From Rhipicephalus microplus (Eukaryota; Arthropoda; Arachnida; Ixodida; Ixodidae): DNA of 64,000 bases. The stretch lies in NCBI RefSeq assembly GCF_043290135.1, contig NW_027464602.1, forward strand, positions 2,170,001 to 2,234,000, read 5' to 3'. The position numbers and the translations under genes were made by a program. This document shows, piece after piece, positions 9,870-64,000 of this stretch (position 1 is the first letter of the stretch; each line of letters opens with the position of its first letter). Under the pieces are notes generated by a model that saw only the letters and a program-made list of their open reading frames with translations, was not told where the DNA came from and did not search any database.

Positions 9870-12800
9870 TATCTTCAAACTATCAGCGCAAAAAAAAGCG
9901 CCGCACCACCACCGGGTGGGCTCGAAACTCCAACCTTTTGGTTAACAGCCGATTGCGCAAGCCAATTGCGCCACGGAGACAGTCCTGCTCCACTCTCACC
10001 ACCATCAGAACATATCTTCAAAGCTATCAGCCTAAAGAAAAAAAGCACCGCGCCACCACCAGGTGGGCTCGAACTTCCAACCTTTCGGTTAACAGCCAAT
10101 TGCGCCACGGAGACAGTCCTGCTTCACTCTCACCACCATCAGAACATATCTTCAAAGCTATCAGCACAAAGAAAAAAAAGCGCCACACCATCGTCGGGTG
10201 GGCTCGAACCTCCAACCTTTCGGTTAACAGCCGATCGCGCAAGCCAATTGCGCCACGGAGACAGTCCTGCTCCACACTCACCACCGTCAAAACATTTCTT
10301 CAGAGCTATCACCCCAAAGAAAAAAAAGCGCCGCACCACCACCGGGTGGGCTCGAAACTCCAACCTTTCGGTTAACAGCCGATCGCGCTAGCCAATTGCG
10401 CCATGGAGACAGTCCTGCTCCACTCTCACCACCATCAGAACATATCTTCAAAGCTATTACCACAAAGAAAAAAAGCGCCGCAACACCACCGGGTTGGCTC
10501 GAACCTCCAACCTTTCGGTTAACAGCCGATCGCGCTAGCCAATTGCGCCACGAAGACAGTCCTGCTGCACTCTCACCACCATCAGAACATATCTTCAAAG
10601 CTATTACCGCAAAGAAAAAAGCAACACACCACTCCCGGGAGGGCTCGAAATTCCAACCTTTCGGTTAACAGCCGATCGCGCTCCACTCTCACCACCATCA
10701 GAACATATCTTCAAACTATCAGCGCAAAAAAAAGCGCAGCACCACCACCGGGTGGGCTCGAAATTCCAACCTTTTGGTTAACAGCCGATCGCGCTTGCCC
10801 ATTGCGCCACGGGGACAGTCTTGCTCCACTCTCACCACCATCAGAACATATCATCAAAGCTATCAGCCCAAAGAAAAAAAAGCGCCGCACCACCACCGGG
10901 TGGGCTCGAACCTTCAACCTTTCGGTTAACAGCCGATCGCACTAGCCAATTGCGCCACGGAGGCAGTCGTGCTCCACTCTTACCACCATCAGAACATATC
11001 TTCAAAGCTATCAGCACAAAGAAAAAAGCAACACACCACTCCCGGGAGGGCTCGAACCTCCAACTTTTCGGTTAACAGCCGATCGCGCTGGCCAATTGCT
11101 CCACGGAGACAGTCCTGCTCCACTCTCACCACCATTAGAACATATCTTTCAAGCTATCAGCCCAAAGAAAAAAAAAGCGCCGCACCACCACCGGGTGGGC
11201 TCGAACCTCCACCCTTTTGGTTAACGGCCGATCGCGCTAGCCAATTGCGCCACGTAGACAATCGTGCTCCACGCTCACCAACATCAGAAAATATCTTCAA
11301 AGCTATCATCGCAAAGAAAAAAGCAACACACCCCACCCGGGAGGGCTCGAACCTCCAACTTTTTGGTTAAAAGCCGATCGCGCTAGCCAATGGCGCCACG
11401 GGGACAGTCCTGCTCCACTCTCACCACCGTCAGAACATTTCTTCAGAGCTATCAGCCTAAAGAAAAAAAGCGCCGCACCACCACCGGGTGGGCTCGAACC
11501 TACAACCTTTCGGTTAACAGCCGATCGCGCTAGCCAATTGCGCCACAGAGACAGTCGTGCTTCACTCTCACCACCGTCAGACCATTTCTTCAGAGCTATC
11601 GCCCCAAAGAAAAAAAAAGCGCCGCACCACCACCGGGTGGGCTCGAACCTCCAACCTTTCGGTTAAAAGTTGATCGCGCTAGCCAATTGCGCCACGGAGA
11701 CAGTCCTGCTCCACTCTCACCACCGTCAGAACATTTCTTCAGAGCTATCAGCCCAAAGAAGAAAAAGCGCCGCACCACCACCGGGTGGGCTCGAACCTCC
11801 AACCTTTCGGTTAACAGCCGATCGCGCTAGCCAAATGCGCCACGGAGACAGTCGTGCTCCACTCTCACCACCATCAGAACATATCTTCAAAGCTATCAGC
11901 CCAAAGAAAAAAAAAGCGCCGCACCACCACCAGGTGGGCTCGAACCTCCAACCTTTCGGTTAACAGCCGATCGCGCTAGCCAATTGCGCCACGGGGACAG
12001 TCTTGCTCCACCCTCACCACCATCAGAACATATCTTCAAAGCTATCAGCGCAAAGAAAAAAAAGCGCCGCACCCCCACCGGGTGGGCTCGAAACTCCAAC
12101 CTTTCGGTTAACAGCCGATCGCGCTAGCCAATTGCACCATGGAGACAGTCCTGCTCCACTCTCACCACCGTCAGAACATATCTTCAAAGCTATTACCACA
12201 AAGAAAAAAGCAACACACCACTCCTGGGAGGGCTCGAAACTCCAACCTTTCGGTTAACAGCTGATCGCGGCAGCCCATTGCGCCACGGAGACAGCCTTGC
12301 TCCAATCTCAACACCATCAGAACATATCTTCAAAGCTATTAGCGCAAAGAAAAAAAGCGCCGCACCACCACCGGGTGGGCTCGAACATCCAACCTTTCGG
12401 TTAACAGCCGATCGCGCTAGCCAATTGCGCCACGGAGACAGTCCTGCTCCACTCTCACCACCATCAGAACATATCTTCAAAGCTATTAGTGCAAAGAAAA
12501 AAGCAGCACACCACTCCCGGGAGGGCTCGAAACTCCAACCTTTCGGTTAACAGCCGATCGCGCTAGCCCATTGCGCCACGGGGACAGTCTTGCTCCACTC
12601 TCACCACCATCAGTACATATCTTCAAAGCTATCAGCACAAAGAAAAAAAATGCCGCACCACCTCCGGGTGGGCTCGAACCTCCAACCTTTCGGTTAACAG
12701 CCGATCGCGCTAGCCTATTGCCCCACGGAGACAGTCGTGCTCCACTCTCACCACCGTCAGAACATTTCTTCAGAGCTATCACCCCAAAGAAAAAAAAGAG

Positions 12801-13650
12801 CCGCAGCACCACCGGGTGGGCTCGAACCATCAACCTTTCGGTTAACAGCCGATCGCGCTAGCCAATTGCGCCACGAAGACAGTCCTGCTGCACTCTCACC
12901 ACCACCAGAACATATCTTCAAACTATCAGCGCAAAAAAAAGCGCCGCACCACCACCGGGTGGGCTCGAAACTCCAACCTTTTGGTTAACACCCGATCGCG
13001 CTAGCCAATTGCGCCACAGAGACAGTCTTGCTCCACTCTGAACACCATCAGAACATATCTTCAAAGCTACAAGCGCAAAGAAAAAAAAGCGCCGCACCAC
13101 CACCAGGTGGGCTCGAACCTCCAACCTTTCGGTTAACAGCCGATCGCGCTAGCCAATTGCGCCACGGGGACAGTCTTGCTCCACCCTCACCACCATCAGA
13201 ACATATCTTCAAAGCTATCAGCGCAAAGAAAAAAAAGCGCCGCACCACCACCGGGTGTGCTCGAACCTCCAACCTTTCGGTTAACAGCCGATCGCGCTAG
13301 CCAATTGCGCCAGGGAGACAGTCCTGCTCCACTCTCACCACCATCAGAACATATCTTCAAAGCTATCAGCCCAAAGAAAAAAAAGCACCGCACCACCACC
13401 GGGTGGGCTCGAACCTCCAACCTTTCGTTTAACAGCCAATCGCGCTAGCCAATTGCGCCACGGAGACAGTCCTGCTCCACTCTCACCACCATCAGAACAT
13501 ATCTTCAAAGCTATCAGCACAAAGAAAAAAAAGCGCCGCACCACCACCGGGTAGGCTCGAAACTCCAACCTTTCGGTTAACAGCCGATCGCGCTAGCCAA
13601 TTGCGCCATGGAGACAGTCCTGCTCCACTCTCACCACCATCAGAACATAT
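9870..13650 (-). repeat. tRNA-Asn-like 148-bp tandem array, segment A (about 25 units)
   Basis: Head-to-tail units of about 148 bp (for example, equivalent positions at 13,048, 13,196, 13,344 and 13,492) all have the tRNA-like part on the minus strand. In plus-strand order a unit has an A-run (4-9 A), a 9-base GC-rich stretch, the reverse complement of the 74-nt tRNA-like sequence, and a spacer of about 60 bases containing TCAGAACATATCTTCAAAGC. Several units carry the alternative acceptor/T-arm sequence CACTCCCGGGAGGG. The left edge abuts the minisatellite at about 9,869. The right edge is the Ty3 insertion. Confidence 0.95.
11037..11110 (-). tRNA. tRNA-Asn(GUU)-like unit, 'CTCCC' variant (representative)
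   Basis: On the minus strand, 74 bases from 11,110 to 11,037 give a tRNA-Asn-like cloverleaf: acceptor 5' strand GTCTCCG, anticodon loop CTGTTAA (anticodon GTT) and T loop TTCGAGC. In this variant the T stem GGAGG/CCTCC pairs perfectly, unlike the majority type. The acceptor 3' strand CGGGAGT pairs with mismatch C-A and several G-U pairs. A T6 run (11,022-11,027 on plus as A6) lies 9 bases beyond the 3' end and could terminate Pol III. It is probably not a canonical tRNA because the acceptor stem is weak. Confidence 0.6.
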
Positions 13651-13820
13651 TGCCACAAGGCAGTAGTGGGATTGGGGCATAAAGCGGTAGAGGGTCCCTG
13701 GCAAAAAGAGAAGACTACGAAGTGGATAGAGACTGGTTCCAGCCCGCCAGTGCGCCAGGCATTGTCATCGCGTGTAATCGTTGTAAATATCTGTAAATAT
13801 ACGTTTTCTTGTAAGATTAT
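13651..13820 (+). repeat. 5' LTR of the Ty3/gypsy element
   Basis: The LTR begins TGCCACAAGG and ends GTAAGATTAT. It matches 18,712-18,881 except at two positions (ACGAAG versus ACGATG, and GTAAAT versus GTAAGT). At 170 bp it is short for a Ty3/gypsy LTR. The 3' end does not show the usual terminal CA. Confidence 0.9.
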
Positions 13821-13838
13821 TGGTGGAGGTGCGGGGTA
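13821..13838 (+). promoter_or_regulatory. Putative minus-strand primer binding site
   Basis: TGGTGGAGGTGCGGGGTA directly follows the LTR. It starts with TGG, the complement of a tRNA CCA end, as expected for a primer binding site. The priming tRNA was not identified. It is not complementary to the 3' end of the array's tRNA-Asn-like sequence. Confidence 0.5.
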
Positions 13839-13906
13839 CGCCTACCTGGCTTTTCCGGCAAACCAACACGGAACTTCGGAGTGGTTGCCACCTTCATTTT
13901 TCTGCA

Positions 13907-15166
13907 ATGGCTCAACAGGCCCACTCACAAGAGCAACAGCAGCCGCAGCTGCAGCAGCAGCAGCAGCAGCACCACCAGCACCAGCACCAGCAGCACCAGC
14001 AGCACCAGCACCAGCAGCAGCAGCTGCCTCCTCTGATTCTCCTGCCTCCACGAGACCCCGGAACCTTCTCGGGCACAGGCAAGGACAAGGTGAATGTTGA
14101 AGATTGGGTCGCTTTGTACGAGCGCGTGAGCGAATACTATAGGTGGGACCCTACGTTGATGCTGGCCAACGTTGTATTTTACTTGCGGGATACGGCGCTC
14201 ACCTGGTATGAGACGCACGAGTCGGAGTTGACCAGCTGGGACGTTTGCAAACTGAAGCTTCTCGAGTTATTCAGCAGGCCATTTGGGCGACAGCAGGCCG
14301 CGAGGAAAGACCTGGAATGTCGCGTGCAGACATCGACAGAATCGTATGTATCTTACATACAGGACGTATTGGGCCTCTGTCGAAAGGTGGACGAGAACAT
14401 GAGCGAAACTGACAAAATCGCTCACATATTGAAGGGAATTGCCGATGACGCGTTCAATCTGTTGATCGTTAAAGATTGCGCCACCGTCGACGCGGTTGTG
14501 AAGGAGTGTCAGCGCTTCGAGCACGCCAAGAACCGTCGCATAACCCGCCAGTTTGCGCGTCTGCCTAATACTGCAGCCACTTCGACCTGTGAATACAGCC
14601 CCAAGTTCACGCAAGCTACATCGTCCGAAAATGTCACCCGAATCGTTCGTCGCGAACTCGAAGCAATGGCTCCTGCAGCCATCGCCTCTGACGGTCCTCA
14701 AGACAACGCATCCACCGTCTCCCTCATCCAAGCCGTCGTTCGCCAAGAAATAGCAAATCTCGGCATCACACCTGTTTGCGCTGTTCGCACCACCGAGAGC
14801 TCGGCTTCTGTTAACCAGATTCCGGTGTACCCTTCACGCTACCCTTCCCGCTACCGGAACCCTGCTGAATGGAGAACGTCGGATGATAGACCAATCTGCT
14901 TTCACTGCTCTCGCGCCGGCCACATTGCACGCTACTGTCGCAATCGTTGGTCATCCAATTCATCTTGGAACACTGGGACATGGCGTCGCTTTGAAGGCAG
15001 TTCTCGCCGCTTTTCTACTTCGTACGATCCACAGCCTGCTCCTACTAACGTTCAGGGCCGAAGGTTCAGCCGGTCGCCTTCACCCCAAGGCCGCCGATCT
15101 CTCTCGCCGATGATTTCTCGATCCAGGTCCCCTGCACGACCTGGGCCCTCAACCTCGGGAAACTAG
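13907..15166 (+). CDS. gag: Gag polyprotein of the Ty3/gypsy element
   Basis: The 419-residue protein is read from ATG at 13,907; the open frame reaches back to 13,820, but that part overlaps the LTR end and primer site. Residues 6-50 are a glutamine/histidine-rich tract encoded by CAG/CAC repeats. A retrotransposon-gag capsid-like region follows (WVALYERVSEYYRWD, then VFYLRDTALTWYET, then LFSRPFGRQQAARKDLE). One CCHC zinc knuckle, CFHCSRAGHIARYC (C-x2-C-x4-H-x4-C), lies near residue 331. The C terminus is basic and serine/arginine-rich. The stop TAG (15,164-15,166) lies immediately after a -1 slippery heptamer, so part of Gag should be extended into Pol. The protein forms the particle and binds the RNA. 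Confidence 0.9.
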   Translation: MAQQAHSQEQQQPQLQQQQQQHHQHQHQQHQQHQHQQQQLPPLILLPPRDPGTFSGTGKDKVNVEDWVALYERVSEYYRWDPTLMLANVVFYLRDTALTWYETHESELTSWDVCKLKLLELFSRPFGRQQAARKDLECRVQTSTESYVSYIQDVLGLCRKVDENMSETDKIAHILKGIADDAFNLLIVKDCATVDAVVKECQRFEHAKNRRITRQFARLPNTAATSTCEYSPKFTQATSSENVTRIVRRELEAMAPAAIASDGPQDNASTVSLIQAVVRQEIANLGITPVCAVRTTESSASVNQIPVYPSRYPSRYRNPAEWRTSDDRPICFHCSRAGHIARYCRNRWSSNSSWNTGTWRRFEGSSRRFSTSYDPQPAPTNVQGRRFSRSPSPQGRRSLSPMISRSRSPARPGPSTSGN

Positions 15167-15196
15167 ACCATGCAGCTCCCGGAGGTGACGCTGCAT
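15157..15196 (+). promoter_or_regulatory. Predicted -1 ribosomal frameshift signal, gag to pol
   Basis: In the gag frame the sequence reads TCG GGA AAC TAG, so G GGA AAC (15,157-15,163) is a canonical X XXY YYZ heptamer directly before the gag stop. Six bases downstream, ATGCAGC (15,170-15,176) pairs with GCTGCAT (15,190-15,196) over 7 bp with a 13-base loop. Pol is open in the -1 frame from this point onward. Its first in-frame ATG (about 15,313) lies beyond the protease active site at 15,292. The same heptamer is used at the gag-pro junction of the simian type D retrovirus SRV-1. Confidence 0.85.
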
Positions 15197-18100
15197 TAAC
15201 GACCCATTCTGCAAATCCTCTGTTGACGATTCCTACACGCCGCAATATTTTGGACCTTTTGGTGGATGATGTTACCGTTACAGCCCTGATAGACACTGGT
15301 GCACAAGTTTCAGTCATGAGCGCTGCTCTCTGTACTAAACTGCGAAAAGTGATCACGCCTCCTATTAAGTGTGCAGTAATGCTTGCCGATGGGAGCACAT
15401 CTGCCGTTCTCGGCATGTGTACTTCTCGCGTATGTATTGCTGGGCGCCAGACCGTCGTATTGTTCACCGTGCTTGAGCAGTGCCCACATGACGTGATTCT
15501 TGGCCTCGACTTTCTCTCTGCGCACTCCGCCCTTATCGACTGCTCGACAGGTCTTCTTCAGTTGGAACTGCCTTTTGACGCCGCTGTTGCCCATAACGCT
15601 CAAAGTCGCCTTTGTGCCACCGAGTTCCTGCATCTTCCGCCGCAAGCCGCGACTTACGTGCAGCTCGTGTGTGATCCGCCTGTGCGCGATGGTGAATATG
15701 TCGTTTCACCTATTACCGACGTTGTGCTAAAGCACTCCATTGCTGTCCCGCACACCGTGGTGAGAGTATGCCACAATCAGACCCATTTGTCTCTTTTGAA
15801 CTTTGGTTTCTCCACGCATGTGCTGCCTGCTGGTATTAAACTAGGCGTCATGTCGTCGCTGCAAGAGTGTGATATTTCTGAACTGTCGGCTCAGCAACCT
15901 ACTCCACATGTCAACTTGCTCACTGCGCCCAACCTGTCAAGCATTGACATTGCCAAAATGATAGCGCCAGATCTTTCGCCCTCCGAAGCACAAGACCTCC
16001 ACCGTCTGTTGACATCCTATGCGGACATGTTCGATCTTGACAACCGCCCTTTAGGCCAGACATCAGTTGTGACCCATCACATCAACACCGGCGATGCCAA
16101 CCCAATTCATCGCCGCCCTTACCGCGTCTCGGTCGCCGAACGCTCTGTCATCCAGAAAGAGGTCGAGAAAATGCTCGCCAAAGGCGTCGTCGAACACTCA
16201 TCTAGTCCGTGGGCATCCCCGGTAGTGCTTGTCAAGAAGAAGGACAACACATGGCGATTTTGTGTCGACTATAGACATCTCAACAAGGTCACTAAGAAGG
16301 ACGTTTACCCTTTACCAAGAATAGATGACGCCCTTGACTGCCTTCATGGCGCAAAGTTTTTCTCGTCCATTGACCTTCGATCTGGTTATTGGCAGATCGC
16401 TGTTGACCCACGGGACCGAGAAAAAACAGCATTTGTAACCCCCGATGGGTTATATCAATTTAAAGTAATGCCGTTTGGGCTTTGTAATGCGCCGGCCACC
16501 TTTGAGCGCATGATGGACTCCCTTCTGCGCGGCTTCAAATGGTCCACTTGCTTATGCTACTTGGATGATAAAATTGTTTTTTCACCGACGTTCGCAAGCC
16601 ATCTAGAGCGACTGTCCAGTATTCTCCAAGTATTTCGCAACGCTGGTCTTCAGCTGAACTCTTCCAAATGCCGTTTCGGCCGTCGCGAAATAACTGTACT
16701 TGGTCACCTCGTTAACGCATCTGGGGTACAGCCCGATCCGGACAAAATTCGCGCATTGACTCAATTTCCCGTGCCCTCTTCTCATAAGGATGTCCGGAGC
16801 TTCCTTGGTTTGTGCTCCTATTTTCGCCGCTTCATCCGAAATTTCGCCGATATTGCGCGGCCTCTCACCGAGCTTCTTAAAAAAGACGTCCCATTTACTT
16901 GGAATTCGCCTCAGAGTGCTGCATTTTCGGCGCTCATTGCAGCCCTCACGACTACGCCAATATTAGCCCACTTCGATCAGACTGCCCCGACAGAAGTTCG
17001 TACGGACGTGAGTGGCCACGGAATTGGTGCTGTTTTAGCTCAGCGTCAGCATGGACGTGACTGTGTCATCGCCTACGCCAGCCGCCTTTTATCCCCTGCC
17101 GAGAGGAACTATTCAATCACCGAAAGAGAGTGTCTTGCTCTTGTTTGGGCTGTCGCTAAATTTCGCCCGTACCTCTTCGGCCGCAGTTTTACTGTTGTAA
17201 CTGATCACCATGCACTCTGCTGGCTTTCCTCGCTAAAGGATCCCACGGGACGTCTCGGTCGTTGGTCTCTACGCCTCCAAGAATACACCTTCTCGGTCGT
17301 GTATAAATCTGGTCACCTCCATCAAGACGCCGACTGCCTGTCACGGTATCCAGTGGATCCACCAGACGCCACAGAGAGAGCTACGGAGGCTTGCGTCTTA
17401 TCAATATCAGACTTTCTTGATATAGCTTCTGAGCAACGCCGCGACCCGGATTTACTTCCCATCATAGAAAGCCTGAGTTCCGCTACTCCACCCACTTCTC
17501 TGAACTTGTATTTCCTTCATGTAGGAGTTCTCTACCGCCACAACATGCGCCCTAACGGCCCTGACCGCCTTCTCGTCGTGCCTTCCCATTTGCGTGTAGA
17601 TGTTCTCCGACAGCTTCACGATGAACCTGCCGCCGGTCACCTTGGAGTCACTCGCACTTATGATCGCGTCCGGCGCCGTTTTTTCTGGCCACGCCTATAT
17701 CGCTCTGTGCAAAAGTATGTTGCCAGCTGCGACCTTTGTCAACGTCGAAAACGACCAACATCGCTTCCAGCTGGCCTTCTTAACCCTATTGATATCCCTG
17801 CTGAACCATTCTACCGCGTAGGGCTCGACCTTCTCGGGCCATTTCCCACTTCTGCATCAGGGAACAAATGGGTTGCCGTGGCGACCGACTACGCGACACG
17901 TTATGCGATCACCCGCGCTCTTCCAACCAGCTGCGCTACCGATGTCGCCGACTTTCTGCTACATGACATCATATTGCATCACGGCGCTCCTCGACAGCTC
18001 GTTACTGACCAAGGCCGATACTTTTTATCTCGCATCGTCCAGGATATCGTACGTTCCTGTTCCACGAACCACAAGTTCACAACGGCATACCATCCACAAA

Positions 18101-18675
18101 CTAATGGACTTACAGAGCGCCTGAATCGCACTATCACGGACATGTTGTCAATGTATGTTTCTCCAGACCACCGTGACTGGGACGCAACGTTACCCTACGT
18201 CACCTTCGCTTACAACTCCTCCAGACATGACACCGCAGGCTCTTCCCCGTTCTACCTTCTTTATGGACGGGAACCCTCGCTGCCTCTTGATACACTCCTT
18301 CCCGCTGGTTCAAGCTCCCCTGTCACATACGTCCGCGATGCCATAGAGCGAGCCGACGCAGCACGACAGATTGCCCGAGAACGACTCATGCTTTCTCAAG
18401 CCTCTCAGAAATATCGATACGATCGTCACCACCGTGAAGTTTCGTATGCACCAGGTTCTCTCGTACTCTTGTGGACCCCATGTCGTCACATCGGCCTCTC
18501 CGAAAAACTTTTATTTCGCTATGACGGACCATACAAAGTCCTTCGCAAGATCAGCAACCTCTCCTACGAGATACAGCGAGTCGTCGACGAAGCGCACTCA
18601 ATGCAACAACCATCCACTGTTGTGCACGTCGTAAGACTGAAGCCTTATGTGTCACCCAACACTCCCCTTTCGTGA
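15163..18675 (+). CDS. pol: Pol polyprotein of the Ty3/gypsy element (by -1 frameshift)
   Basis: The frame is open for about 1,170 codons after the slip site, with no ATG before the protease core, so it is expected as Gag-Pol. Domains in order: aspartic protease with LIDTGAQVS (15,286 on) and VILGLDFL; reverse transcriptase with SPWASPVVLVKKKD, SSIDLRSGYWQI, MPFGLCNAPATFERMMD and catalytic YLDD at 16,558-16,569; RNase H with TDVSGHGIGAVLA, ITERECLALVWAV and TDHHAL; integrase with the HHCC finger (H-x6-H ... CDLC) and the DDE core (GLDLLGPF, VTDQGRYF, HPQTNGLTERLNR); and a C-terminal GPY/F-type module (FRYDGPYKVL). No chromodomain and no env follow. All catalytic motifs are present and there is no internal stop, so the enzyme set may be active. 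Confidence 0.92.
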   Translation, partial: LDHAAPGGDAALTTHSANPLLTIPTRRNILDLLVDDVTVTALIDTGAQVSVMSAALCTKLRKVITPPIKCAVMLADGSTSAVLGMCTSRVCIAGRQTVVLFTVLEQCPHDVILGLDFLSAHSALIDCSTGLLQLELPFDAAVAHNAQSRLCATEFLHLPPQAATYVQLVCDPPVRDGEYVVSPITDVVLKHSIAVPHTVVRVCHNQTHLSLLNFGFSTHVLPAGIKLGVMSSLQECDISELSAQQPTPHVNLLTAPNLSSIDIAKMIAPDLSPSEAQDLHRLLTSYADMFDLDNRPLGQTSVVTHHINTGDANPIHRRPYRVSVAERSVIQKEVEKMLAKGVVEHSSSPWASPVVLVKKKDNTWRFCVDYRHLNKVTKKDVYPLPRIDDALDCLHGAKFFSSIDLRSGYWQIAVDPRDREKTAFVTPDGLYQFKVMPFGLCNAPATFERMMDSLLRGFKWSTCLCYLDDKIVFSPTFASHLERLSSILQVFRNAGLQLNSSKCRFGRREITVLGHLVNASGVQPDPDKIRALTQFPVPSSHKDVRSFLGLCSYFRRFIRNFADIARPLTELLKKDVPFTWNSPQSAAFSALIAALTTTPILAHFDQTAPTEVRTDVSGHGIGAVLAQRQHGRDCVIAYASRLLSPAERNYSITERECLALVWAVAKFRPYLFGRSFTVVTDHHALCWLSSLKDPTGRLGRWSLRLQEYTFSVVYKSGHLHQDADCLSRYPVDPPDATERATEACVLSISDFLDIASEQRRDPDLLPIIESLSSATPPTSLNLYFLHVGVLYRHNMRPNGPDRLLVVPSHLRVDVLRQLHDEPAAGHLGVTRTYDRVRRRFFWPRLYRSVQKYVASCDLCQRRKRPTSLPAGLLNPIDIPAEPFYRVGLDLLGPFPTSASGNKWVAVATDYATRYAITRALPTSCATDVADFLLHDIILHHGAPRQLVTDQGRYFLSRIVQDIVRSCSTNHKFTTAYHPQTNGLTERLNRTITDMLSMYVSPDHRDWDATLPYVTFAYNSSRHDTAGSSPFYLLYGREPSLPLDTLLPAGSSSPVTYVRDAIERADAARQIARERLMLSQASQKYRYDRHHREVSYAPGSLVLLWTPCRHIGLSEKLLFRYDGPYKVLRKISNLSYEIQRVVDEAHSMQQPSTVVHVVRLKPYVSPNTPLS

Positions 18676-18678
18676 CAA

Positions 18679-18711
18679 GCGCCGGGTCGGCGCTTTAACG
18701 CCGCGGGGTAG
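18679..18711 (+). promoter_or_regulatory. 3' end of the internal region: hairpin and polypurine-like tract
   Basis: Directly after the pol stop, GCGCCG (18,679-18,684) and CGGCGC (18,688-18,693) form a perfect 6-bp hairpin with loop GGT. The G-rich GCGGGGTAG (18,703-18,711) abuts the 3' LTR and is the best candidate for the plus-strand priming tract, though it is short and interrupted. Confidence 0.45.
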
Positions 18712-18881
18712 TGCCACAAGGCAGTAGTGGGATTGGGGCATAAAGCGGTAGAGGGTCCCTGGCAAAAAGAGAAGACTACGATGTGGATAGAGACTGGTTC
18801 CAGCCCGCCAGTGCGCCAGGCATTGTCATCGCGTGTAATCGTTGTAAGTATCTGTAAATATACGTTTTCTTGTAAGATTAT
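18712..18881 (+). repeat. 3' LTR of the Ty3/gypsy element
   Basis: This 170-bp copy of the 5' LTR has two substitutions. It is followed directly by CTTCAAAGC, the continuation of the interrupted array unit. Confidence 0.9.
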
Positions 18882-30225: not shown

Positions 30226-30229
30226 CATA

Positions 30230-30281: not shown

Positions 30282-30313
30282 GTGGTGCGCGCGAAACGAA
30301 CGGCAGACCGGCC

Positions 30314-55506: not shown

Positions 55507-55508
55507 GG

Positions 55509-56194
55509 AGTGGGTGTGGCGGACCAGGCCTCGCCATGCTGCCTAATAGGCCGTTCCTCTGCGTTATGCAGGTCCTGCTGGCGCAATTGGCCGCTCTTCA
55601 GTCGGTCGGGATTCAGCCGGACGGGACTCAATTCGATGCACGCGCGGATCCAACAGTTCTACTGGCGCAGTTGGCCGCTCTTCAGTCGGTCGGGATTCAG
55701 CCGGACGGGACTCAATTCGATGCACGCGCGGATCCTACATTACGCTCTGCACCGCATCGTCAGTGCTTCTGGCCTCACGTTATAAACCCGCCATACCACG
55801 TGACTCCTTCAGACGCCTTTATAAGAGCCATGCCGCATCGCTTCAACTTCAGTGGGTGTGGCGGACCAGGCCTCGCCATGCTGCCTAATAGGCCGTTCCT
55901 CTGCGTTATGCAGGTCCTGCTGGCGCAATTGGCCGCTCTTCAGTCGGTCGGGATTCAGCCGGACGGGACTCAATTCGATGCACGCGCGGATCCAACAGTT
56001 CTACTGGCGCAGTTGGCCGCTCTTCAGTCGGTCGGGATTCAGCCGGACGGGACTCAATTCGATGCACGCGCGGATCCTACATTACGCTCTGCACCGCATC
56101 GTCAGTGCTTCTGGCCTCACGTTATCAATCCCGCCATACCACGTGACTCCTTCAGACGCCTTTATAAGAGCCATGCCGCATCGCTTCAACTTCA
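55509..56194 (+). repeat. Two 5' promoter monomers (342-343 bp) of the CR1-like element
   Basis: The word GTGGGTGTGGCGGACCAGG begins at 55,510, 55,852 and 56,195, so two full monomers and the start of a third are present. Each full monomer contains two copies of an 84-bp subrepeat starting CTGGCGCA (for example 55,578 and 55,662), then CCACGTGA and TATAAGAG near its 3' end. The monomers are CpG-rich and differ by few bases. The 231-codon open frame at 55,536-56,231 follows from the repeat and would act as an upstream frame in RNAs starting at the first monomer. Confidence 0.88.
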
Positions 56195-56197
56195 GTG
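56163..56197 (+). promoter_or_regulatory. TATA box and TCAGT initiator at the monomer boundary
   Basis: TATAAG starts at 56,163 and TCAGTG starts at 56,192, which puts the initiator A (56,194) 31 bases downstream of the first T. TCAGT is the arthropod initiator consensus. The same pair occurs one monomer earlier (TATAAG at 55,820, TCAGTG ending the first monomer). The inserted copy itself begins within AGTGGGTG at 55,509, exactly at the predicted start site. These would be Pol II promoters. Confidence 0.8.
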
Positions 56198-56220
56198 GGT
56201 GTGGCGGACCAGGCCTCGCC

Positions 56221-57066
56221 ATGCTGCCTAATAGGCCGTTCCTCTGCGTTATGCAGGTTAGTGTTTATTATAGCTCTATCAAAAGTGGCTATCGTGGCCT
56301 CCTGGTCCTGCCATGCCCACGCCAGTGTCTTGAAATTTTATGCAATGTTTTTTGTGCATGCAAACTTTTGTTATGTGGGGATGTTGAGTTGAACCCTGGG
56401 CCGAGCACTGAAGCCTTATTGACTAAACTGCTGGAAGGCCAAAATAAGTTGGTCACAGAGATGGCTACTTTGAGGGATCAGCAGTCCAACATGGAAAAAA
56501 TGATTTCAGACCTTAACAAGCGTTTTCTCGAATTTGGAATGCATATCGATCGAATAGATGGCCTAGAACAGGCGGTCAAATCGCTACAAGCGAAAGTAGC
56601 TGACATTGATGATAGGAGCAGGCGTTCAAACCTGGTTTTGTTTGGCATTCAGGAGGGCAGCACTGAAACTGAGACAACTCTTCGCGCTGAGGTGATTGAC
56701 AACCTTTTTTGGGACAAGCTAAACGTAAGATGCAGCTCTGTTGTAAGAATCCACCGCATTGGAAAGCCGGGTAAAATGAGGCCAGTAATTGTATCCTTTC
56801 AAAATTATAACGAAAAGCAGGATGTTCTTAAAAATGCACGAAAGTTAAAGGGAACAAAAATTTACATTCAGAATGACTATTCGGTGGATACTCTAAGGAA
56901 ACGCAAGCTTTTATGGCAAAGTGCAAAAGAGGAAAAAAAACAGGGCAAGAAAGTGATTCTTCTGCATGATAAACTGCGAATAGATAACGAACTTTACGTA
57001 TGGGATGATGTCACACATTCGAGGGTAGAACTGGTTACTCGGCGAAAAGTTTCCTCCAGGGATTGA
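56221..57066 (+). CDS. ORF1 of the CR1-like element with 2A peptide, coiled coil, RRM-like
   Basis: The 281-residue protein is read from ATG 56,221, the first ATG after the predicted start site at 56,194; ATG 56,251 is an alternative. The N terminus is cysteine- and leucine-rich (LLVLPCPRQCLEIL, then CACKLLLC) and ends in GDVELNPGP, a consensus 2A ribosome-skipping motif with the break predicted between G60 and P61. A coiled coil follows (about 75-135), then an RRM-like region (SNLVLFGIQEG, RIHRIGKPGKMRPVIVSF, KGTKIYIQNDYS) and a basic C-terminal domain, as in L1-type ORF1 proteins. The stop is TGA at 57,064. 2A motifs at ORF1 N termini are known from other non-LTR elements. The RNA-binding role is inferred. 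Confidence 0.88.
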   Translation: MLPNRPFLCVMQVSVYYSSIKSGYRGLLVLPCPRQCLEILCNVFCACKLLLCGDVELNPGPSTEALLTKLLEGQNKLVTEMATLRDQQSNMEKMISDLNKRFLEFGMHIDRIDGLEQAVKSLQAKVADIDDRSRRSNLVLFGIQEGSTETETTLRAEVIDNLFWDKLNVRCSSVVRIHRIGKPGKMRPVIVSFQNYNEKQDVLKNARKLKGTKIYIQNDYSVDTLRKRKLLWQSAKEEKKQGKKVILLHDKLRIDNELYVWDDVTHSRVELVTRRKVSSRD

Positions 57067-57069
57067 CAG
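57064..57069 (+). other. Single in-frame UGA between ORF1 and ORF2
   Basis: ORF1 and ORF2 share frame 1. The codons read AGG GAT TGA CAG ATA, and the frame then stays open to 59,805. The stop is followed by C, a context that favours readthrough. No in-frame ATG exists between the UGA and 57,577, which is past the endonuclease motifs ITETW and AGDFN. Readthrough is the simplest way to make ORF2 protein; a recent nonsense mutation of a fused frame is the alternative. Confidence 0.75.
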
Positions 57070-59808
57070 ATACCTTCTCGCCTTGAGGAACTGCGCCTCT
57101 TAAATATCAATGCGCGTAGCATTGTGAACAAAAGTGATAATCTTGAAGCTTTGATCTTGGGATACAGCCCTCATGTTGTTGTGATCACTGAAACTTGGCT
57201 CCGAAGTGAAGTTCACGACAACAGTATATTTCCGCCTTCGTACCAAGTATTTCGTCGAGATAGAAGTTCAAAAGGAGGTGGCGTTGCCGTCCTGATTAAA
57301 CAAAACATTTCAGCAGCACTTTCAAAACAAATCAATAACCATGAAACTATTACCTTGAAATTGCCATGCTGGGGCTTTTCCTTAGTACTAGTAGCCATTT
57401 ATCGCCGTCCCGATGCTCCTCCGGAGTTTTTGCAGGATTTATGTGATCACGTCTTGGGTTTTAGACAACAAAAAATAATTATTGCTGGTGACTTCAACCT
57501 TCCTGGTGTAAATTGGGAGAACCCGTTTGCTTCTAATGAACCCAGTGCTCATGTTCACAGTGTACTGGACTTATTGATGTGCTGTAATTTGGAACAGGTG
57601 GTTAGACAACCTACTCGTGTTCAGGGTAGTTCCTCTTCTATATTAGATCTTGTTTTTTTGAGCCGATGCATGACCGACTTTTCTGTGACAATTGAACCTG
57701 GTCTTTCAGACCACTATATGGTGAAGTGCGTATGCCACTTCTTGACAAAGAAAAGTGCTCCTTCTAAAACTGTCGCAGTCAAAGATTACCTTCATGCAGC
57801 GGATGAAAGCGTCTTACACTTTCTTGACATAAACTTGAGCAATTTTGGTGGGTCTGATGTTTCTGAGCTATGGGAGACATTTAAAAGGTCATGTCTATAC
57901 TGCATAGATCATTTTGTGCCAAATAAAATGAAAAGGATCGCGAAAAAAAATCCGTGGATTACCCGTGACATCTTGCATCAAAAAAGGAAACTAAAACGAT
58001 TACGACGTCACCGCGCATCTCAGACAACTATTCACACAAACCAGACACTTTTAAACCAGTCTATCCGATGTGCTAAGCAATTTTATTTTCAACACACTCT
58101 TCCAGACTTCATACGGACGGCTCCTGATAAATTCTGGTCGCAATTATCTCGCAAGAAAGAAGGTACTCTTCAAATAATTCACAATGATACAATCGTTGTA
58201 GATGAAACAAGCATAGCGACACATTTCAATGAGTACTTTCAAAGCGTTTTCCAAAAAGATTGCGACAGCGCACGGGCTTCTGCTACCTCTCCTTATCTCG
58301 ACGCAGACATCGTGTCCTTATCTGGTGTTGTATCTATGCTTCTGAATTTAAAGACTAAAGCTTCGCCTGGTCCCGATAACATTCACAACGCGTTTCTGCG
58401 TCGATACGCTGAGATGGTTGCTAAATTCCTTGTGATCATTTTCCGCGCCTCCCTGTCTTCTTCTTCTGTTCCGATAGATTGGAAAATAGCGCGAATTGTA
58501 CCAATACTCAAATCAGGAGATAAATTATTGATTACAAATTATCGCCCTATATCTATTACCTGTTCTTGTTGTAAGCTTCTCGAGCACGTCATAGCTAACT
58601 ACATCACTAATTTTCTTAATGAGAACAATATATTAACCCCATTTCAACATGGGTTCAGAAAAGGTTTGTCCACTGTTACTCAACTGGTCACAGTCATACA
58701 TACTTTCGCATCTATTCTTGATAAATCCGGGCAAATTGATGTTATTTTCTTAGACTTTAGGAAGGCTTTTGATCTAGTTCCCCACAATAAATTGATTTTC
58801 AAACTTAAAAATATTGGCCTTCCAGAGTTTATTGTAAATTGGGTATCCGCATACTTGTCAAATCGAACACAATTTGTTGATATAAATGGTCACTGCTCAT
58901 CCAAACTTCAGGTTACATCAGGAGTTCCTCAGGGAAGTGTTTTAGGGCCCCTACTTTTTTTAATCTATATAAATGATATTGTTGAAGTTGTCCCTGAATA
59001 TGTCGGAATAAGGCTATTTGCCGATGATTGCGTGCTGTACAAGGAAATTGTTACCATAAATGATCAACAGCTTTTAAATACCTGCCTTGATAACGTTTAC
59101 CAGTGGTGTAAGCAATGGGATATGAAGCTAAACTCAGACAAAACAGTGTACATGAACATCACTAGAAAGAAAAACTTCTTTTCTTTTCCATATGCGCTAC
59201 AAACTCACGTACTCAGGGAGGTCAGTGTGTATAAGTACCTTGGCGTAACGATAACCAAAAATCTAAGTTGGAATATGCATGTATCGAACATTTGCGCATC
59301 CGCCTTCCGTAAGCTATGCTTTCTCAAGTACAAACTTCGTTTTGCCCCGTCATCAGTGAAGCTGTTAGCCTATAATACCATCATTAGACCTTCTCTCGAG
59401 TATGCGTGCGTCATTTGGGACCCATACACTAGGAAAAACATTCATGCCATAGAAATGATTCAACGTAAATGCATCAGGTTTATATTTTCTAAGTACCGCA
59501 TGACAGACTCCCCTACAGCTATCATGAAAGAAAATAATATACAAGAACTTCAACTTCGTCGCAAAATTCTGAGATTAAAATTTCTTTTTCAGTTAAAACA
59601 CAAACATTTCGCACTAGATGCCTCTACGTTTATACAACCACTGACGTCACGAGAAACTAGAAATCGCCATGCTGCGTCAATAACACCATTCCAGACACGT
59701 ACTAATACATTTAAGTTCTCTTTTTTTCCTAGGACCATTGTAGACTGGAACGCCCTGCCGTTTGAGTCGTTACAGAACATTGAACACTTTGATTTTATCA
59801 CTTCATAA
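57067..59808 (+). CDS. ORF2 of the CR1-like element: APE endonuclease and RT
   Basis: The frame is open for 913 codons after the UGA. The endonuclease begins at once (LLNINARSIVNKSDNLEA), then VVVITETWL, AIYRRPDAPPEF, IIAGDFNLPGVNWE, SSILDLVFLS and GLSDHYMVKC. Reverse transcriptase: YRPISITCSCCKLLEHVI, FLDFRKAFDLVPHNKL, SGVPQGSVLGPLLFLIYI and catalytic FADD near 59,020. The C-terminal part (PSLEYACVIWDPYTRKNI, then IQRKCIRFIF, ending WNALPFESLQ) is typical of the CR1/Jockey side of the tree. There is no RNase H and no zinc finger. All motifs needed for target-primed reverse transcription are present. There is no AUG at its start. Confidence 0.92.
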   Translation, partial: QIPSRLEELRLLNINARSIVNKSDNLEALILGYSPHVVVITETWLRSEVHDNSIFPPSYQVFRRDRSSKGGGVAVLIKQNISAALSKQINNHETITLKLPCWGFSLVLVAIYRRPDAPPEFLQDLCDHVLGFRQQKIIIAGDFNLPGVNWENPFASNEPSAHVHSVLDLLMCCNLEQVVRQPTRVQGSSSSILDLVFLSRCMTDFSVTIEPGLSDHYMVKCVCHFLTKKSAPSKTVAVKDYLHAADESVLHFLDINLSNFGGSDVSELWETFKRSCLYCIDHFVPNKMKRIAKKNPWITRDILHQKRKLKRLRRHRASQTTIHTNQTLLNQSIRCAKQFYFQHTLPDFIRTAPDKFWSQLSRKKEGTLQIIHNDTIVVDETSIATHFNEYFQSVFQKDCDSARASATSPYLDADIVSLSGVVSMLLNLKTKASPGPDNIHNAFLRRYAEMVAKFLVIIFRASLSSSSVPIDWKIARIVPILKSGDKLLITNYRPISITCSCCKLLEHVIANYITNFLNENNILTPFQHGFRKGLSTVTQLVTVIHTFASILDKSGQIDVIFLDFRKAFDLVPHNKLIFKLKNIGLPEFIVNWVSAYLSNRTQFVDINGHCSSKLQVTSGVPQGSVLGPLLFLIYINDIVEVVPEYVGIRLFADDCVLYKEIVTINDQQLLNTCLDNVYQWCKQWDMKLNSDKTVYMNITRKKNFFSFPYALQTHVLREVSVYKYLGVTITKNLSWNMHVSNICASAFRKLCFLKYKLRFAPSSVKLLAYNTIIRPSLEYACVIWDPYTRKNIHAIEMIQRKCIRFIFSKYRMTDSPTAIMKENNIQELQLRRKILRLKFLFQLKHKHFALDASTFIQPLTSRETRNRHAASITPFQTRTNTFKFSFFPRTIVDWNALPFESLQNIEHFDFITS

Positions 59809-60020
59809 CGTTAAGCCCCAAAATGCTCCTATCGCTGCGCCATATGCTATTGCGAATATGTATTGGTGTGTATAGTTTTGTGTAAATATACTTAATTTGG
59901 TCACGAATTGTTACTAATTTATGTGATGAAAATTGCTGTTGAATATTGATTGTCATGCGTACATTTATTAATTTTGTGTGCCTTGACTGCTGATTGCTTG
60001 TGATTTTTTTTTTCCCACTC

Positions 60021-60077
60021 CTGCATGGGCTCTGAAGTGAGCCTGCAGTATTCTGTAAAAAAAAAAAAAAAAAAAAC
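60021..60077 (+). terminator. 3' hairpin, ATTCTGT motif and poly(A) of the CR1-like element
   Basis: CTGCA (60,021-60,025) and GGCTC (60,028-60,032) pair with GAGCC (60,039-60,043) and TGCAG (60,044-60,048). This gives a 10-bp stem with a 2-base bulge and loop TGAAGT. TATTCTGT follows, like the ATTCTRT octamer at CR1 3' ends, then about 19-20 A residues. In L2-type LINEs a 3' hairpin is what the reverse transcriptase recognises, so this is the likely recognition signal. Confidence 0.65.
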
Positions 60078-63000
60078 TCCAACCTTTCGGTTAACAGCCG
60101 ATCGCGCTAGCCAATTGCGCCATGGAGACAGTCCTGCTCCACTCTCACCACCATCAGAACATATCTTCAAAGCTATTACCACAAGAAAAAAGCAACACAC
60201 CACTCCTGGGAGGGCTCGAACCTCCAACCTTTTGGTTAACAGCCGATCGCGCAAGCCAATTGCGCCACGGAGACAGTCCTGCTCCACTCTCACCACCATC
60301 AGAACATATCTTCAAAGCTATTAGCGCAAAGAAAAAAATCGCCGCACCACTCCTGGGAGGGCTCGAACCTCCAACCTTTTGGTTAACAGCCGATCGCGCA
60401 AGCCAATTGCGCCACGGAGACAGTCCTGCTCCACTCTCACCACCATCAGAACATATCTTCAAAGCTATTAGCGCAAAGAAAAAAAGCGCCGCGCCACCAC
60501 CGGGTGGGCTCGAACCTCCAACCTTTCGGTTAACAGCCGATCGCGCTAACCCAATGCGCCACGGGGACAGTCTTGCTCTACTCTCACCACCATCAGAACA
60601 TATCTTCAAAGCTATCAGCGCAAAGAAAAAAAAGCGCCGCACCACCACCGGGTGGGCTCGAACCTCCAACCTTTCGATTAACAGCCGATCGCGCTAGCCA
60701 ATTGCGGCACGGAGACAGTCTTGCTCCACTCTCAACACCATCAGAACATATCTTCAAAGCTATCAGCACAAAGAAAAAAAAACGCCGCACCACCACCGGG
60801 TGGGCTCGAACCTCCAACCTTTCGGTTAACAGCCGATCGCGCAAGCCAATTGCGCCACGGAGACAGTCCTGCTCCACTCTCACCACCATCAGAACATATC
60901 TTCAAAGCTATCAGCGCAAAGAAAAAAAAGCGCCGCACCACCACCGGGTGTGCTCGAACCTCCAAACTTTCGGTTAACAGCCGATCGCGCTAGCCCATTG
61001 CGCCACGGAGACAGCCTTGCTCCAATCTCAACACCATCAGAACATATCTTCAAAGCTATTAGCGCAAAGAAAAAAAGCGCCGCACCACCACCGGGTGGGC
61101 TCGAACATCCAACCTTTCGGTTAACAGCCGATCGCGCTAGCCAATTGCGCCACGGAGACAGTCCTGCTCCACTCTCACCACCATCAGAACATATCTTCAA
61201 AGCTATTAGTGCAAAGAAAAAAGCAGCACACCACTCCCGGGAGGGCTCGAAACTCCAACCTTTCGGTTAACAGCCGATCGCGCTAGCCCATTGCGCCACG
61301 GGGACAGTCTTGCTCCACACTCACCACCATCAGTACATATCTTCAAAGCTATCAGCACAAAGAAAAAAAAACGCCGCACCACCACCGGGTGGGCTCGAAC
61401 TTCCAACCTTTCGGTTAACAGCCGATCGCGCAAGCCAATTGCGCCACGGAGACAGTCCTGCTCCACTCTCACCACCATCAGAACATATCTTCAAAGCTAT
61501 CGGCCCAAAGAAAAAAAGCACCGCACCACCACCGGGTGGGCTCGAACCTCCAACCTTTCGGTCAACAGGTAATCGCGCTAGCCAATTGCGCCACGGAGAC
61601 AGTCCTGCTCCACTCTCACCACCATCAGAACATATCTTCAAAGCTATCAGCACAAAGAAAAAAAAGCGGCACACCATCACCGCGTGGGCTCGAACCTCCA
61701 ACCTTTCGGTTAACAGCCGATCGCGCTAGCCAACTGCGCCACGGAGACAGTCGTGCTCCACTCTCGTCACCATCAGAACATATCTTCAAAGCTATTAGCC
61801 CAAAGAAAAAAAAAGCGCCGCACCACCTCCGGGTGGGCTCGAACCTCCAACCTTTCGGTTAACAGCCGATCGCGCTAGCCTATTTCCCCACGGAGACAGT
61901 CGTGCTCCACTCTCACCACCGTCAGAACATTTCATCAGAGCTATCACCCCAAAGAAAAAAAAGAGCCGCAGCACCACCGCGTGGGCTCGAACCTCCAACC
62001 TTTCGGTTAACAGCCGATCGCGCTAGCCAATTGCGCCACGAAGACAGTCCTGCTGCACTCTCACCACCATCAGAACATATCTTCAAACTATCAGCGCAAA
62101 AAACAGCGCCGCACCACCACCGGGTGGGCTCGAAACTCCAACCTTTTGGTTAACAGCCGATCGCGCTTGCCCATTGCGCCACGGGGACAGTCTTGCTCCA
62201 CTCTCACCACCATCAGAACATATCTTCAAAGCTATCAGCCAAAAGAAAAAAAAGCGCCGCACCACTCCTGGGAGGGCTCGAACCTCCAACCTTTTGGTTA
62301 ACAGCCGATCGCGCAAGCCAATTGCGCCACGGAGACAGTCCTGCTCCACTCTCACCACCATCAGAACATATCTTCAAAGCTATTAGTGCAAAGAAAAAAA
62401 GCGCCGCGCCACCACCGGGTGGGCTCGAACCTCCAACCTTTCGGTTAACAGCCGATCGCGCTAACCCAATGCGCCACGGGGACAGTCTTGCTCTACTCTC
62501 ACCACCATCAGAACATATCTTCAAAGCTATCAGCGCAAAGAAAAAAAAGCGCCGCACCACCACCGGGTGGGCTCGAACCTCCAACCTTTCGATTAACAGC
62601 CGATCGCGCTAGCCAATTGCGCCACGGAGACAGTCTTGCTCCACTCTCAACACCATCAGAACATATCTTCAAAGCTATCAGCACAAAGAAAAAAAAACGC
62701 CGCACCACCACCGGGTGGGCTCGAACCTCCAACCTTTCGGTTAACAGCCGATCGCGCAAGCCAATTGCGCCACGGAGACAGTCCTGCTCCACTCTCACCA
62801 CCATCAGAACATAACTTCAAAGCTATCAGCGCAAAGAAAAAAAAGCGCCGCAACACCACCGGGTGTGCTCGAACCTCCAACCTTTCGGTTAACAGCCGAT
62901 CGCGCTAGCCAATTGCGCCAGGGAGACAGTCCTGCTCCACTCTCACCGCCATCAGAACATATCTTCAAAGCTATCAGCCCAAAGAAAAAAAAGCACCGCA

Positions 63001-64000
63001 CCACCACAGGGTGGGCTCGAACCTCCAACCTTTCGTTTAACAGCCAATCGCGCTAGCCAATTGCGCCACGGAGACAGTCCTGCTCCACTCTCACCACCAT
63101 CAGAACATATCTTCAAAGCTATCAGCACAAAGACAAAAAAGCGCCGCACCACCACCGGGTAGGCTCGAAACTCCAACCTTTCGGTTAACAGCCGATCGCG
63201 CTAGCCAATTGCGCCATGGAGACAGTCCTGCTCCACTCTCACCACCATCAGAACATATCTTCAAAGCTATTACCACAAAGAAAAAAGCAACACACCACTC
63301 CTGGGAGGGCTCGAACCTCCAACCTTTCGGTTAACAGCCGATCGCGCTAGCCCATTGCGCCACGGAGATAGCCTTGCTCCACTCTCAACACCATCAGAAC
63401 ATATCTTCAAAGCTATCAGCACAAAGAAAAAAAGCGCCACACCATCATCGGGTGGGCTCGAACCTCCAACCTTTCGGTTAACAACCGATCGCGCAAGCCA
63501 ATTGCGCCACGGAGACAGTCCTGCTCCACACTCACCACCGTCAAAACATTTCTTCAGAGCTATCACCCCAAAGAAAAAAAAGCGCCGCAACACCACCGGG
63601 TGGGCTCGATTCTCCAACCTTTCGGTTAACAGCCGATCGCGCTAGCCAATTGCGCCACGGAGACAGTCCTGCTTCACTCTTACCACCATCAGAACATATA
63701 TTCAAAGCTATCAGCCCAAAGAATAGAAAACGCCGCGCCACCACCGGGTGGGCTCGAACCTCCAACCGTTCGGTTAACAGCCGATCGCGCTAGCCCATTG
63801 CGCCACGGGGACAGTCTTGCTCCACTCTCACCACCATCAGAACATATCTTCAAAGCTATCAGCACAAAGAGAAAAAAGCGCCGCACCACCACCGGGTGGG
63901 CTCGAAACTCCAACCTTTCGGTTAACAGCCGATCGCGCTAGCCAATTGCGCCATGGAGACAGTCCTGCTCCACTCTCACCACCACCAGAACATATCTTCA
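60078..64000 (-). repeat. tRNA-Asn-like 148-bp tandem array, segment D (about 26 units, continues off window)
   Basis: The array resumes with the rest of the unit cut by the CR1-like element and continues in the same orientation to the last base. An internal duplication of 13 units is visible: 60,593/62,508, 60,721/62,636 and 60,741/62,656, offset 1,915. A block from about 61,206 to 62,150 matches 19,923-20,870 in segment B, so higher-order blocks are shared over more than 40 kb. Confidence 0.95.

What the first reader, a model, noticed from the sequence alone, without database searches (positions are those of the whole stretch)
9870..64000. A roughly 40-kb satellite made of about 268 tandem tRNA-Asn(GUU)-like Pol III units
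Seen: a 148-bp unit repeats head to tail in one orientation. On the minus strand it contains a 74-base sequence colinear with eukaryotic tRNA-Asn, including anticodon loop CTGTTAA, T loop TTCGAGC, A box TGGCGCAATTGG and B box GGTTCGAGCCC. A T run of 4-9 follows about 9 bases after the 3' end. Known: tRNA genes with internal A/B boxes and a downstream T run are Pol III units, and large tandem tRNA arrays exist in some eukaryotes. Inference: this is a tRNA gene together with its flanks that turned into a satellite. It may be transcribed, bind TFIIIC, feed tRNA-fragment production, or act as a chromatin domain. The array is not complete in the window, so the real locus is larger.
Basis: partly seen in the sequence, partly recalled or inferred. 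Interest (0 to 1): 0.93.

Follow-up and report, generated by a model that had tools for sequence, protein, structure and literature searches.

The report
Tick satellite built from tRNA pseudogenes
A tick genome carries megabases of a tandem repeat made of broken copies of the gene for asparagine transfer RNA, beside shorter arrays of intact copies, so one genome shows how an essential gene can turn into satellite DNA.

Summary
The repeat is real: 265 near full-length and 9 partial copies of a 148-bp unit, in one orientation, form four blocks split by one LTR and two non-LTR retrotransposons. Each unit holds a tRNA-Asn-like sequence and a spacer with a T run. The window is a fragment: probes of the same 3.26-Gb genome suggest about 17.8 Mb (~120,000 units, interpolated) on at least seven contigs, on two of them beside TTAGG repeats. 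The units are pseudogenes: 252 of 252 aligned window units have at least 3 broken pairs among 21 stem pairs, without compensatory excess, and the tRNA part varies as much as the spacer outside its T-run region. The same genome holds a lone intact tRNA-Asn gene and tandem 149-150-bp units with the identical tRNA (67.2 bits; best in the window 47.3) and a homologous spacer. So a tRNA gene plus about 75 bp of flank was amplified; some arrays stayed intact, another branch became a pseudogene satellite. Of 1,323 sampled units, 747 keep A box, B box and terminator; transcription is untested.

The parts
9870..13650 (-). satellite block 1, 148-bp tRNA-Asn-like units
   Evidence: TRF, unit profile
13651..18878 (+). 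LTR retrotransposon (gypsy-type by appearance) inserted in a unit; LTRs of about 170 bp
   Evidence: LTR alignment (2 differences inside the LTRs, a third at a flank base); RVT_1 in one piece; the same insertion in L013 and L018
18879..30225 (-). satellite block 2, with a 19-unit segmental duplication (units beginning at 23851-26653 against 27092-29894, 99.7%)
30226..34825 (+). non-LTR retrotransposon with TCTC tail and an 11-bp target duplication
   Evidence: sequence, junctions, RVT_1 in one piece
34826..55504 (-). satellite block 3
55505..60076 (+). non-LTR retrotransposon with poly(A) tail, inserted in the B-box region of a unit
   Evidence: sequence, junctions, RVT_1 in one piece
60077..64000 (-). 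satellite block 4, continuing beyond the window
   Evidence: continuation L012
63296..63369 (-). best-scoring tRNA-like sequence of the window (47.3 bits)
44448..44521 (-). example unit, tRNA-like part (46.8 bits); its spacer with T run follows at lower + coordinates

Best explanation
In this hard-tick lineage a tRNA-Asn gene was tandemly duplicated together with about 75 bp of flank. Some arrays keep intact tRNA genes (shown for four units read on contig C9; contig C45 is partly decayed). Another branch carries substitutions that break stems (in 74-nt numbering, A at nt 28 in 1,308, A at 64 in 1,048 and T at 70 in 1,000 of 1,323 sampled units; direction of change inferred). It spread by segmental duplication (shown) and unequal exchange (inferred) into a satellite of roughly 18 Mb on at least seven contigs. 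The window is a 54-kb piece of it with three retrotransposon insertions. Its units do not encode normal tRNA-Asn (inferred from the broken stems). They probably lie in mostly silent chromatin, while many keep the A box, B box and terminator that Pol III factors use (inferred, untested).
For: (1) 265 near full-length plus 9 partial units in one orientation. (2) 252 of 252 aligned window units have at least 3 of 21 stem pairs broken; of 1,323 units from 8 contigs (the 252 included; pairs with an unread base counted as paired) 1 has one, 8 have two and 1,314 have three or more. No overall covariation. (3) tRNA part and spacer without the T-run region (columns 77-100) diverge alike: 4.9% v 4.4%, p=0.55; 5.8% v 4.7%, p=0.16. 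Stem sites vary more than loop sites (p=0.017, p=0.015). (4) The same unit fills probes of C4, C13, C14, C16, C29, C39, C79 and one of C38; interpolated 17.8 Mb. (5) L126: lone tRNA-Asn gene with unrelated flanks. L125: four tandem units with the identical 74-nt tRNA. Both have 0 broken pairs and 67.2 bits; the satellite profile matches the L125 units over nearly their whole length. C45 units score 51-62 bits with 0, 1 and 3 broken pairs. (6) Intact tRNA against satellite consensus: 6 of 74 differences; spacer identical at 60 of 78 aligned positions. (7) Near-identical unit blocks, e.g. 19 units at 99.7%; one gypsy insertion in three places with 900-bp 3' flanks 98-99.7% identical against a background mean of 89%.
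Against: The T-loop TTCGAGC is the least diverged 7-base window (rank 1 of 110; rank 2 by tree-based counts), and three stem pairs pair slightly more than shuffles (z 3.2-3.7), so some constraint is not excluded. With the T-run region included the spacer diverges more than the tRNA (7.4% v 4.9%). One group for the satellite is weakly supported (UFBoot 48; FastTree 0.69), so several founding events are possible. Other T28/T52 copies are decayed too (C17: 5 broken pairs, 34 bits; C293 and C502: 3 broken pairs, 48 bits). Total size is interpolated on contigs chosen because they matched. Only 4 units of C9 and 3 of C45 were read.
Confidence: 0.82

Rival explanations
1. The units are functional tRNA-Asn genes amplified to raise translational capacity, as a 2026 preprint on Dermacentor andersoni suggests for the tRNA expansion in ticks generally.
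For: 181 of 188 ARAGORN calls are Asn(GUU). PMC13105059 reports 20-30-fold more predicted tRNA genes in ticks and reads it as translational capacity (passages and one section seen). Tandem units with intact tRNA do exist on C9.
Against: At least 3 broken stem pairs in each of 252 aligned window units, best score 47.3 against 67.2 bits for intact genes of the same genome, no covariation. This rival may hold for C9, not for the window.
Confidence: 0.04
2. The array is a satellite grown from a tRNA-derived SINE rather than from a tRNA gene.
For: tRNA-headed SINEs are described in ticks (PMC3160391, passages), and one lies at 1712-1950.
Against: In the consensus the T run begins 9 bases after the tRNA end and no SINE-type tail is seen; tandem units with an intact tRNA and a homologous spacer exist in the same genome.
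Confidence: 0.05
3. The satellite has an active chromatin role (pericentromeric or subtelomeric domain, bound by TFIIIC or Pol III), so selection acts on the B-box core and unit length rather than on the tRNA.
For: T-loop core least diverged of 110 windows; 747 of 1,323 units keep A box, B box and terminator; unit length 148 bp; arrays beside TTAGG-bearing ends of C13 and C29; array edges cluster about 32-36 bp upstream of the next tRNA start.
Against: The A box is not conserved beyond background (rank 69 of 102) and the 9-base B box ranks 38 of 106; the edge bin was chosen after the fact on 11 events; no ChIP or RNA data.
Confidence: 0.2
4. The long array is an assembly artefact.
For: Long satellite arrays are hard to assemble, and several of the contigs are small.
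Against: Each of the three inserts interrupts one unit whose two parts add up, one with an 11-bp target duplication; 191 of 252 units are distinct; the arrays also lie inside a 243-Mb contig.
Confidence: 0.03

Closest known systems
Human 1q23.3 tRNA variable number tandem repeat (PMC4041453; abstract and outline seen)
   Same: tandem copies of a unit that contains tRNA genes
   Different: 7.3-kb unit whose tRNA genes are conserved in mouse, 9-43 copies per allele; here 148 bp, pseudogenes, about 120,000 copies (interpolated)
Arabidopsis SYY cluster of tandem tRNA-Ser/Tyr genes (PMC12308677; passages seen)
   Same: tandem tRNA genes intersecting heterochromatin; 13 of 54 clustered tRNA-Tyr genes there give only tRNA-like RNA
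   Different: dozens of mostly intact genes; here megabases of broken copies and separate tandem units with intact tRNA
Ixodes scapularis ISR-1/2/3 satellites (PMC4748124, PMC12140222; passages seen)
   Same: tick tandem repeats; [quoted passage not shown] ISRs reported methylated
   Different: ISR-2 unit is 95-99 bp; each of 9 ISR primers tested (of 12 in the table) has at least 5 mismatches in the window; no tRNA link in the passages seen
Tick SINE Ruka (PMC3160391; passages seen)
   Same: tRNA-headed Pol III-type repeat of ticks
   Different: dispersed and described as serine tRNA-like; not a tandem satellite
Xenopus tDNA repeats and Entamoeba tRNA arrays (recalled; no call)
   Same: large tandem arrays of tRNA genes
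   Different: as recalled, their units hold intact tRNA genes

Membership tests
satellite DNA | long head-to-tail arrays in one orientation with local duplication | tested here: met
   orientation switches between probes on C4, C13 and C39
functional tRNA-Asn gene | intact cloverleaf stems | tested here: not met
   252 of 252 aligned window units with at least 3 of 21 pairs broken; 1,314 of 1,323 sampled units
functional tRNA-Asn gene | anticodon GUU | tested here: met
   241 of 252; 93% of 1,323
Pol III type 2 transcription unit | A box, B box and T-run terminator | tested here: met
   all three in 157 of 252 and 747 of 1,323, so the rest lack one; consensus matches recalled, not functional tests
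Pol III type 2 transcription unit | transcribed by Pol III | not testable with these tools
   needs RNA or ChIP data
tandem tRNA gene array with homologous spacer | intact tRNA copies in tandem in the same genome | tested here: met
   L125 (4 of 4 units) and L122 (1 of 3 units); these are relatives, not the window
tRNA-derived SINE | dispersed insertions with target duplication and 3' tail | tested here: inconclusive
   the unit profile gives no hit in the window outside the array blocks; dispersed copies were not searched for genome-wide
Ixodes ISR-1/2/3 | sequence identity to ISR | tested here: not met
   9 of 12 published primers tested, best 5 mismatches; full ISR sequences not available
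centromeric satellite | CENP-A binding | not testable with these tools
   only position relative to TTAGG repeats on two contigs

The most novel reading that the evidence does not exclude
The pseudo-tRNA satellite is a chromosomal domain occupied by TFIIIC/TFIIIB: the tRNA lost its coding role, but the B-box core is kept as a protein-binding site in some 100,000 units of nucleosome length, and retrotransposons of different types land about 32-36 bp upstream of the tRNA start because Pol III factors sit there.
Probability: 0.13. Interest if true: 0.87.

Novelty: new variant of a known kind. Interest (0 to 1): 0.63.

Why it matters
One genome holds what look like the stages of a gene becoming a satellite: a lone gene, tandem units with intact tRNA, partly decayed arrays and megabases of pseudogenes, all tandem forms sharing a spacer. 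It also warns that the 20-30-fold tRNA expansion reported for ticks and read as translational capacity (PMC13105059) may partly be satellite-type amplification; placing the predicted tRNAs on assemblies and tRNA sequencing would tell. That preprint used a score cut of 50 and a confidence filter, so many units of this window may already be excluded there; units like those on C9 probably would not be.

Tried and rejected
Rejected: that this is ISR-2 of Ixodes. I first recalled a 148-bp ISR unit; the paper gives 95-99 bp and 9 tested primers do not match. Rejected: purifying selection on the whole tRNA part. Rejected: that the gypsy element found three times at one unit position proves site-specific insertion; the 3' flanks show one insertion copied with the array (98.2%, 98.1% and 99.7% against a background mean of 89.4%, maximum 93.7%). 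The only 5' flank pair compared is 91.9% identical, which is within background and less clear.

Led nowhere: exact pattern scans of viral and prokaryote contigs (0 matches); a protein search with a plus-strand array ORF, which found 11 proteins that I read as antisense tRNA-Asn translations; folding of the satellite consensus and a variant (z +0.94 and +1.18), where a recalled human tRNA-Asn did not fold as a cloverleaf either, though it scored z -2.30, so the shape is not decisive. One search returned 0 because I set the gap range wrongly (the window's own copy has a gap of 66 bases, outside 70-95); the corrected request (93, 102) did not complete. Genome-wide counts of a satellite pattern (58, 107 and repeats), of the intact tRNA (123 and repeats) and of RF00005 (103, 106) did not complete. 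In the Ixodes chromosome paper PMC10561763 the words tRNA, satellite and ISR do not occur in the main text (passages); passages of PMC5295604 and PMC10085805 gave nothing used here.
Full report
OBSERVATION. A profile of the unit finds 274 pieces in the window, 265 near full-length and 9 partial, all on the minus strand, most often 146-148 bp apart. TRF gives period 148 in four blocks, 9870-13650, 18879-30225, 34826-55504 and 60077-64000. ARAGORN tRNAs, 181 of them Asn(GUU). RF00005 passes gathering 218 times with a best score of 47.3 bits (150 rows shown, one of them outside the array at 1712-1784).

INSERTS. 13651-18878 is an LTR retrotransposon (LTRs of about 170 bp with 2 differences inside them); 30226-34825 and 55505-60076 look like non-LTR elements, one with an 11-bp target duplication; a piece of each carries RVT_1. 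Each insert cuts a single unit whose two parts add up, so the array predates them and is not an assembly collapse.

PSEUDOGENES. 252 full units were aligned, 191 distinct sequences; about 19 units that are partial or match the profile less completely were left out. With 21 cloverleaf pairs, every one of the 252 has at least 3 broken pairs; the first anticodon-stem pair is A-A in 251 of 252. The paired fraction is not above that of shuffled partners (500 of 500 shuffles at least as high with all units, 480 of 500 with distinct ones). The tRNA part and the spacer without its T-run region (columns 77-100) diverge alike, 4.9% and 4.4%, p=0.55; with that region the spacer diverges by 7.4%. In 1,323 units from 8 contigs (the 252 included; pairs with an unread base counted as paired) 1 unit has one broken pair, 8 have two and 1,314 have three or more. 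Covariation is again absent overall (144 of 500 shuffles reach the value, 1,012 distinct units, 20 pairs), though three pairs reach z 3.2-3.7. Stem sites vary more than loop sites (p=0.017; p=0.015).

WHAT IS KEPT. A box, B box and a T run of 4 or more are together present in 157 of 252 window units and 747 of 1,323 sampled units; the box consensus is recalled. The T-loop/B-box core TTCGAGC is the least diverged 7-base window of 110 in both sets and second in a tree-based count of changes. The A box (rank 69 of 102) and the 9-base B box (38 of 106) do not stand out by divergence; by tree-based counts the B box ranks 9 of 106. Transitions at CpG sites are more frequent than at other C/G sites (7.0% v 2.9%, p=0.005; p=0.001 by tree events; 7.1% v 3.2%, p=0.0002). 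That fits germline cytosine methylation, as reported for ISR satellites of Ixodes (PMC12140222, passages), but CpG observed/expected is still about 1 in the array, so methylation is only an inference.

SCALE. The window is G000:C29:2170001-2234000 of a 3.26-Gb assembly with 1,202 contigs; a 301-base query gave 85 matches from 40 scored of 1,243 candidates. Short probes find the same array on C29 (16 of 17 between 0.1 and 5.2 Mb, then 0 of 3), C13 (11 of 11 between 0.7 and 5.0 Mb; 0 of 2 before, 0 of 1 at 20 Mb), C4 (8 of 8 between 230.4 and 233.4 Mb, partial at 229.5 and 234.0, 90% at 229.0, none at 229.8 and 230.0, none in 7 further probes of the last 16 Mb at 228 and from 235 Mb on), C14 (5 of 5, two of them partial), C16 (4 of 5), C39 (4 of 4 between 2.6 and 3.7 Mb counting the longer L019, 0 of 3 before) and C79 (6 of 6). 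Of 20 probes on other contigs one is positive (C38), and 4 of 4 probes inside C1-C4 at 50 or 100 Mb are negative. Interpolation over seven contigs gives 17.8 Mb, about 120,000 units, 0.55% of the assembly; the contigs were picked because they matched, so this is an estimate and not a census. TTAGG-type repeats lie beyond the array in 2 of 2 probes at the start of C13 and in 2 of the 3 negative probes at the end of C29. Identity is the same within and between contigs (0.891 and 0.890) and slightly higher within a locus (0.900). Local blocks such as 19 units at 99.7% show recent segmental duplication.

ORIGIN. An exact search for a tRNA-Asn core with T at nt 28 and 52 gave 6 places. The four fetched (C17, C45, C293, C502) lie in repeats with a spacer homologous to the satellite, with units about 78-82% identical to satellite units (C45, C17 and C293 measured). 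Three tandem C45 units have 0, 1 and 3 broken pairs and 51-62 bits; the C17 unit has 5 broken pairs and 34 bits, those of C293 and C502 have 3 and 48 bits, so decay is present in these branches too. A search with the intact C45 tRNA listed 110 matches (915 candidates, 40 scored): C45 3.11-3.19 Mb, C9 82.98-83.12 Mb with 149-150-bp spacing in many places, and four places on C8. L125 (C9) contains four tandem units with an identical tRNA, 0 broken pairs and 67.2 bits each; L126 (C8) is a lone gene with the same 74 bases and unrelated flanks. The satellite consensus differs from this tRNA at 6 of 74 positions and the spacer is identical at 60 of 78 aligned positions; no sampled unit has fewer than 5 differences over nt 2-74. 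Trees place the sampled satellite units as one group, with weak support.

HOW IT WORKS. Shown: tandem units, decay, segmental duplication and later insertions. Inferred: unequal exchange as the engine, no contribution to normal tRNA-Asn, mostly silent chromatin. Open: Pol III or TFIIIC binding. One search lists 22 array edges. Counting two edges of one insert once and the gypsy copies once, and dropping four short-gap edges of L022, leaves 11 events; 5 lie within unit columns 112-116, about 32-36 bp upstream of the next tRNA start (gypsy, the first non-LTR element, L023, L066 and the window's left edge). The chance is 1.8e-5 for a fixed 5-bp bin and 5e-4 after correction for 29 bins; without the window's left edge, 4 of 10, corrected 0.007. 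The bin was chosen after the fact, and the window's left edge and L066 are not shown to be insertions. As recalled, some retrotransposons of yeast and Dictyostelium target Pol III genes, so this is a lead and no more.

KNOWN. Tandem tRNA gene repeats are known in humans (PMC4041453, abstract and outline) and Arabidopsis (PMC12308677, passages). Ticks are reported to have 20-30-fold more predicted tRNA genes than other Acari and insects, uniformly across isotypes (PMC13105059, passages and section 14). I found no description of a tRNA-Asn satellite in ticks in ten library searches (listings seen, few papers opened); that library holds open-licence papers only.

Noticed in passing
window 1712-1950 (+): tRNA-headed SINE with a TCAA-type tail and a 12-bp target duplication; looks like the tick SINE Ruka (name from recall and PMC3160391, sequence not compared).
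   Followed up: partly
window 9870, 13651, 30225; L023, L066: Array edges cluster at unit columns 112-116, about 32-36 bp upstream of the next tRNA start, with different inserted sequences.
   Followed up: partly
G000:C9 82979249-83120238: Tandem near-identical tRNA-Asn matches; two sets of eight (from 83043506 and from 82996728) look like a segmental duplication offset by 46.8 kb.
   Followed up: partly
G000:C4 at 243.24 Mb (L040) and C39 at 0.3 Mb (L075): Tandem repeats of period 193 fill both probes; whether they are one family was not checked.
   Followed up: no
G000:C29 6.2 and 6.7 Mb, C13 0.1 and 0.4 Mb: TTAGG-type repeat stretches near contig ends beyond the satellite.
   Followed up: no
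window plus strand, e.g. 42596-43468: The antisense of the array gives long open frames with a repeated motif (GGLEPPTFRLT...), a likely source of false predicted proteins; similar translations occur in other public contigs.
   Followed up: partly
window 55579 and 55921: Repeats in the 5' part of the second non-LTR element hold a 13-base match to the satellite A-box region; probably chance.
   Followed up: partly
L123, L124 (C293, C502): Related units alternate with partial T-arm and spacer copies, a composite repeat.
   Followed up: no
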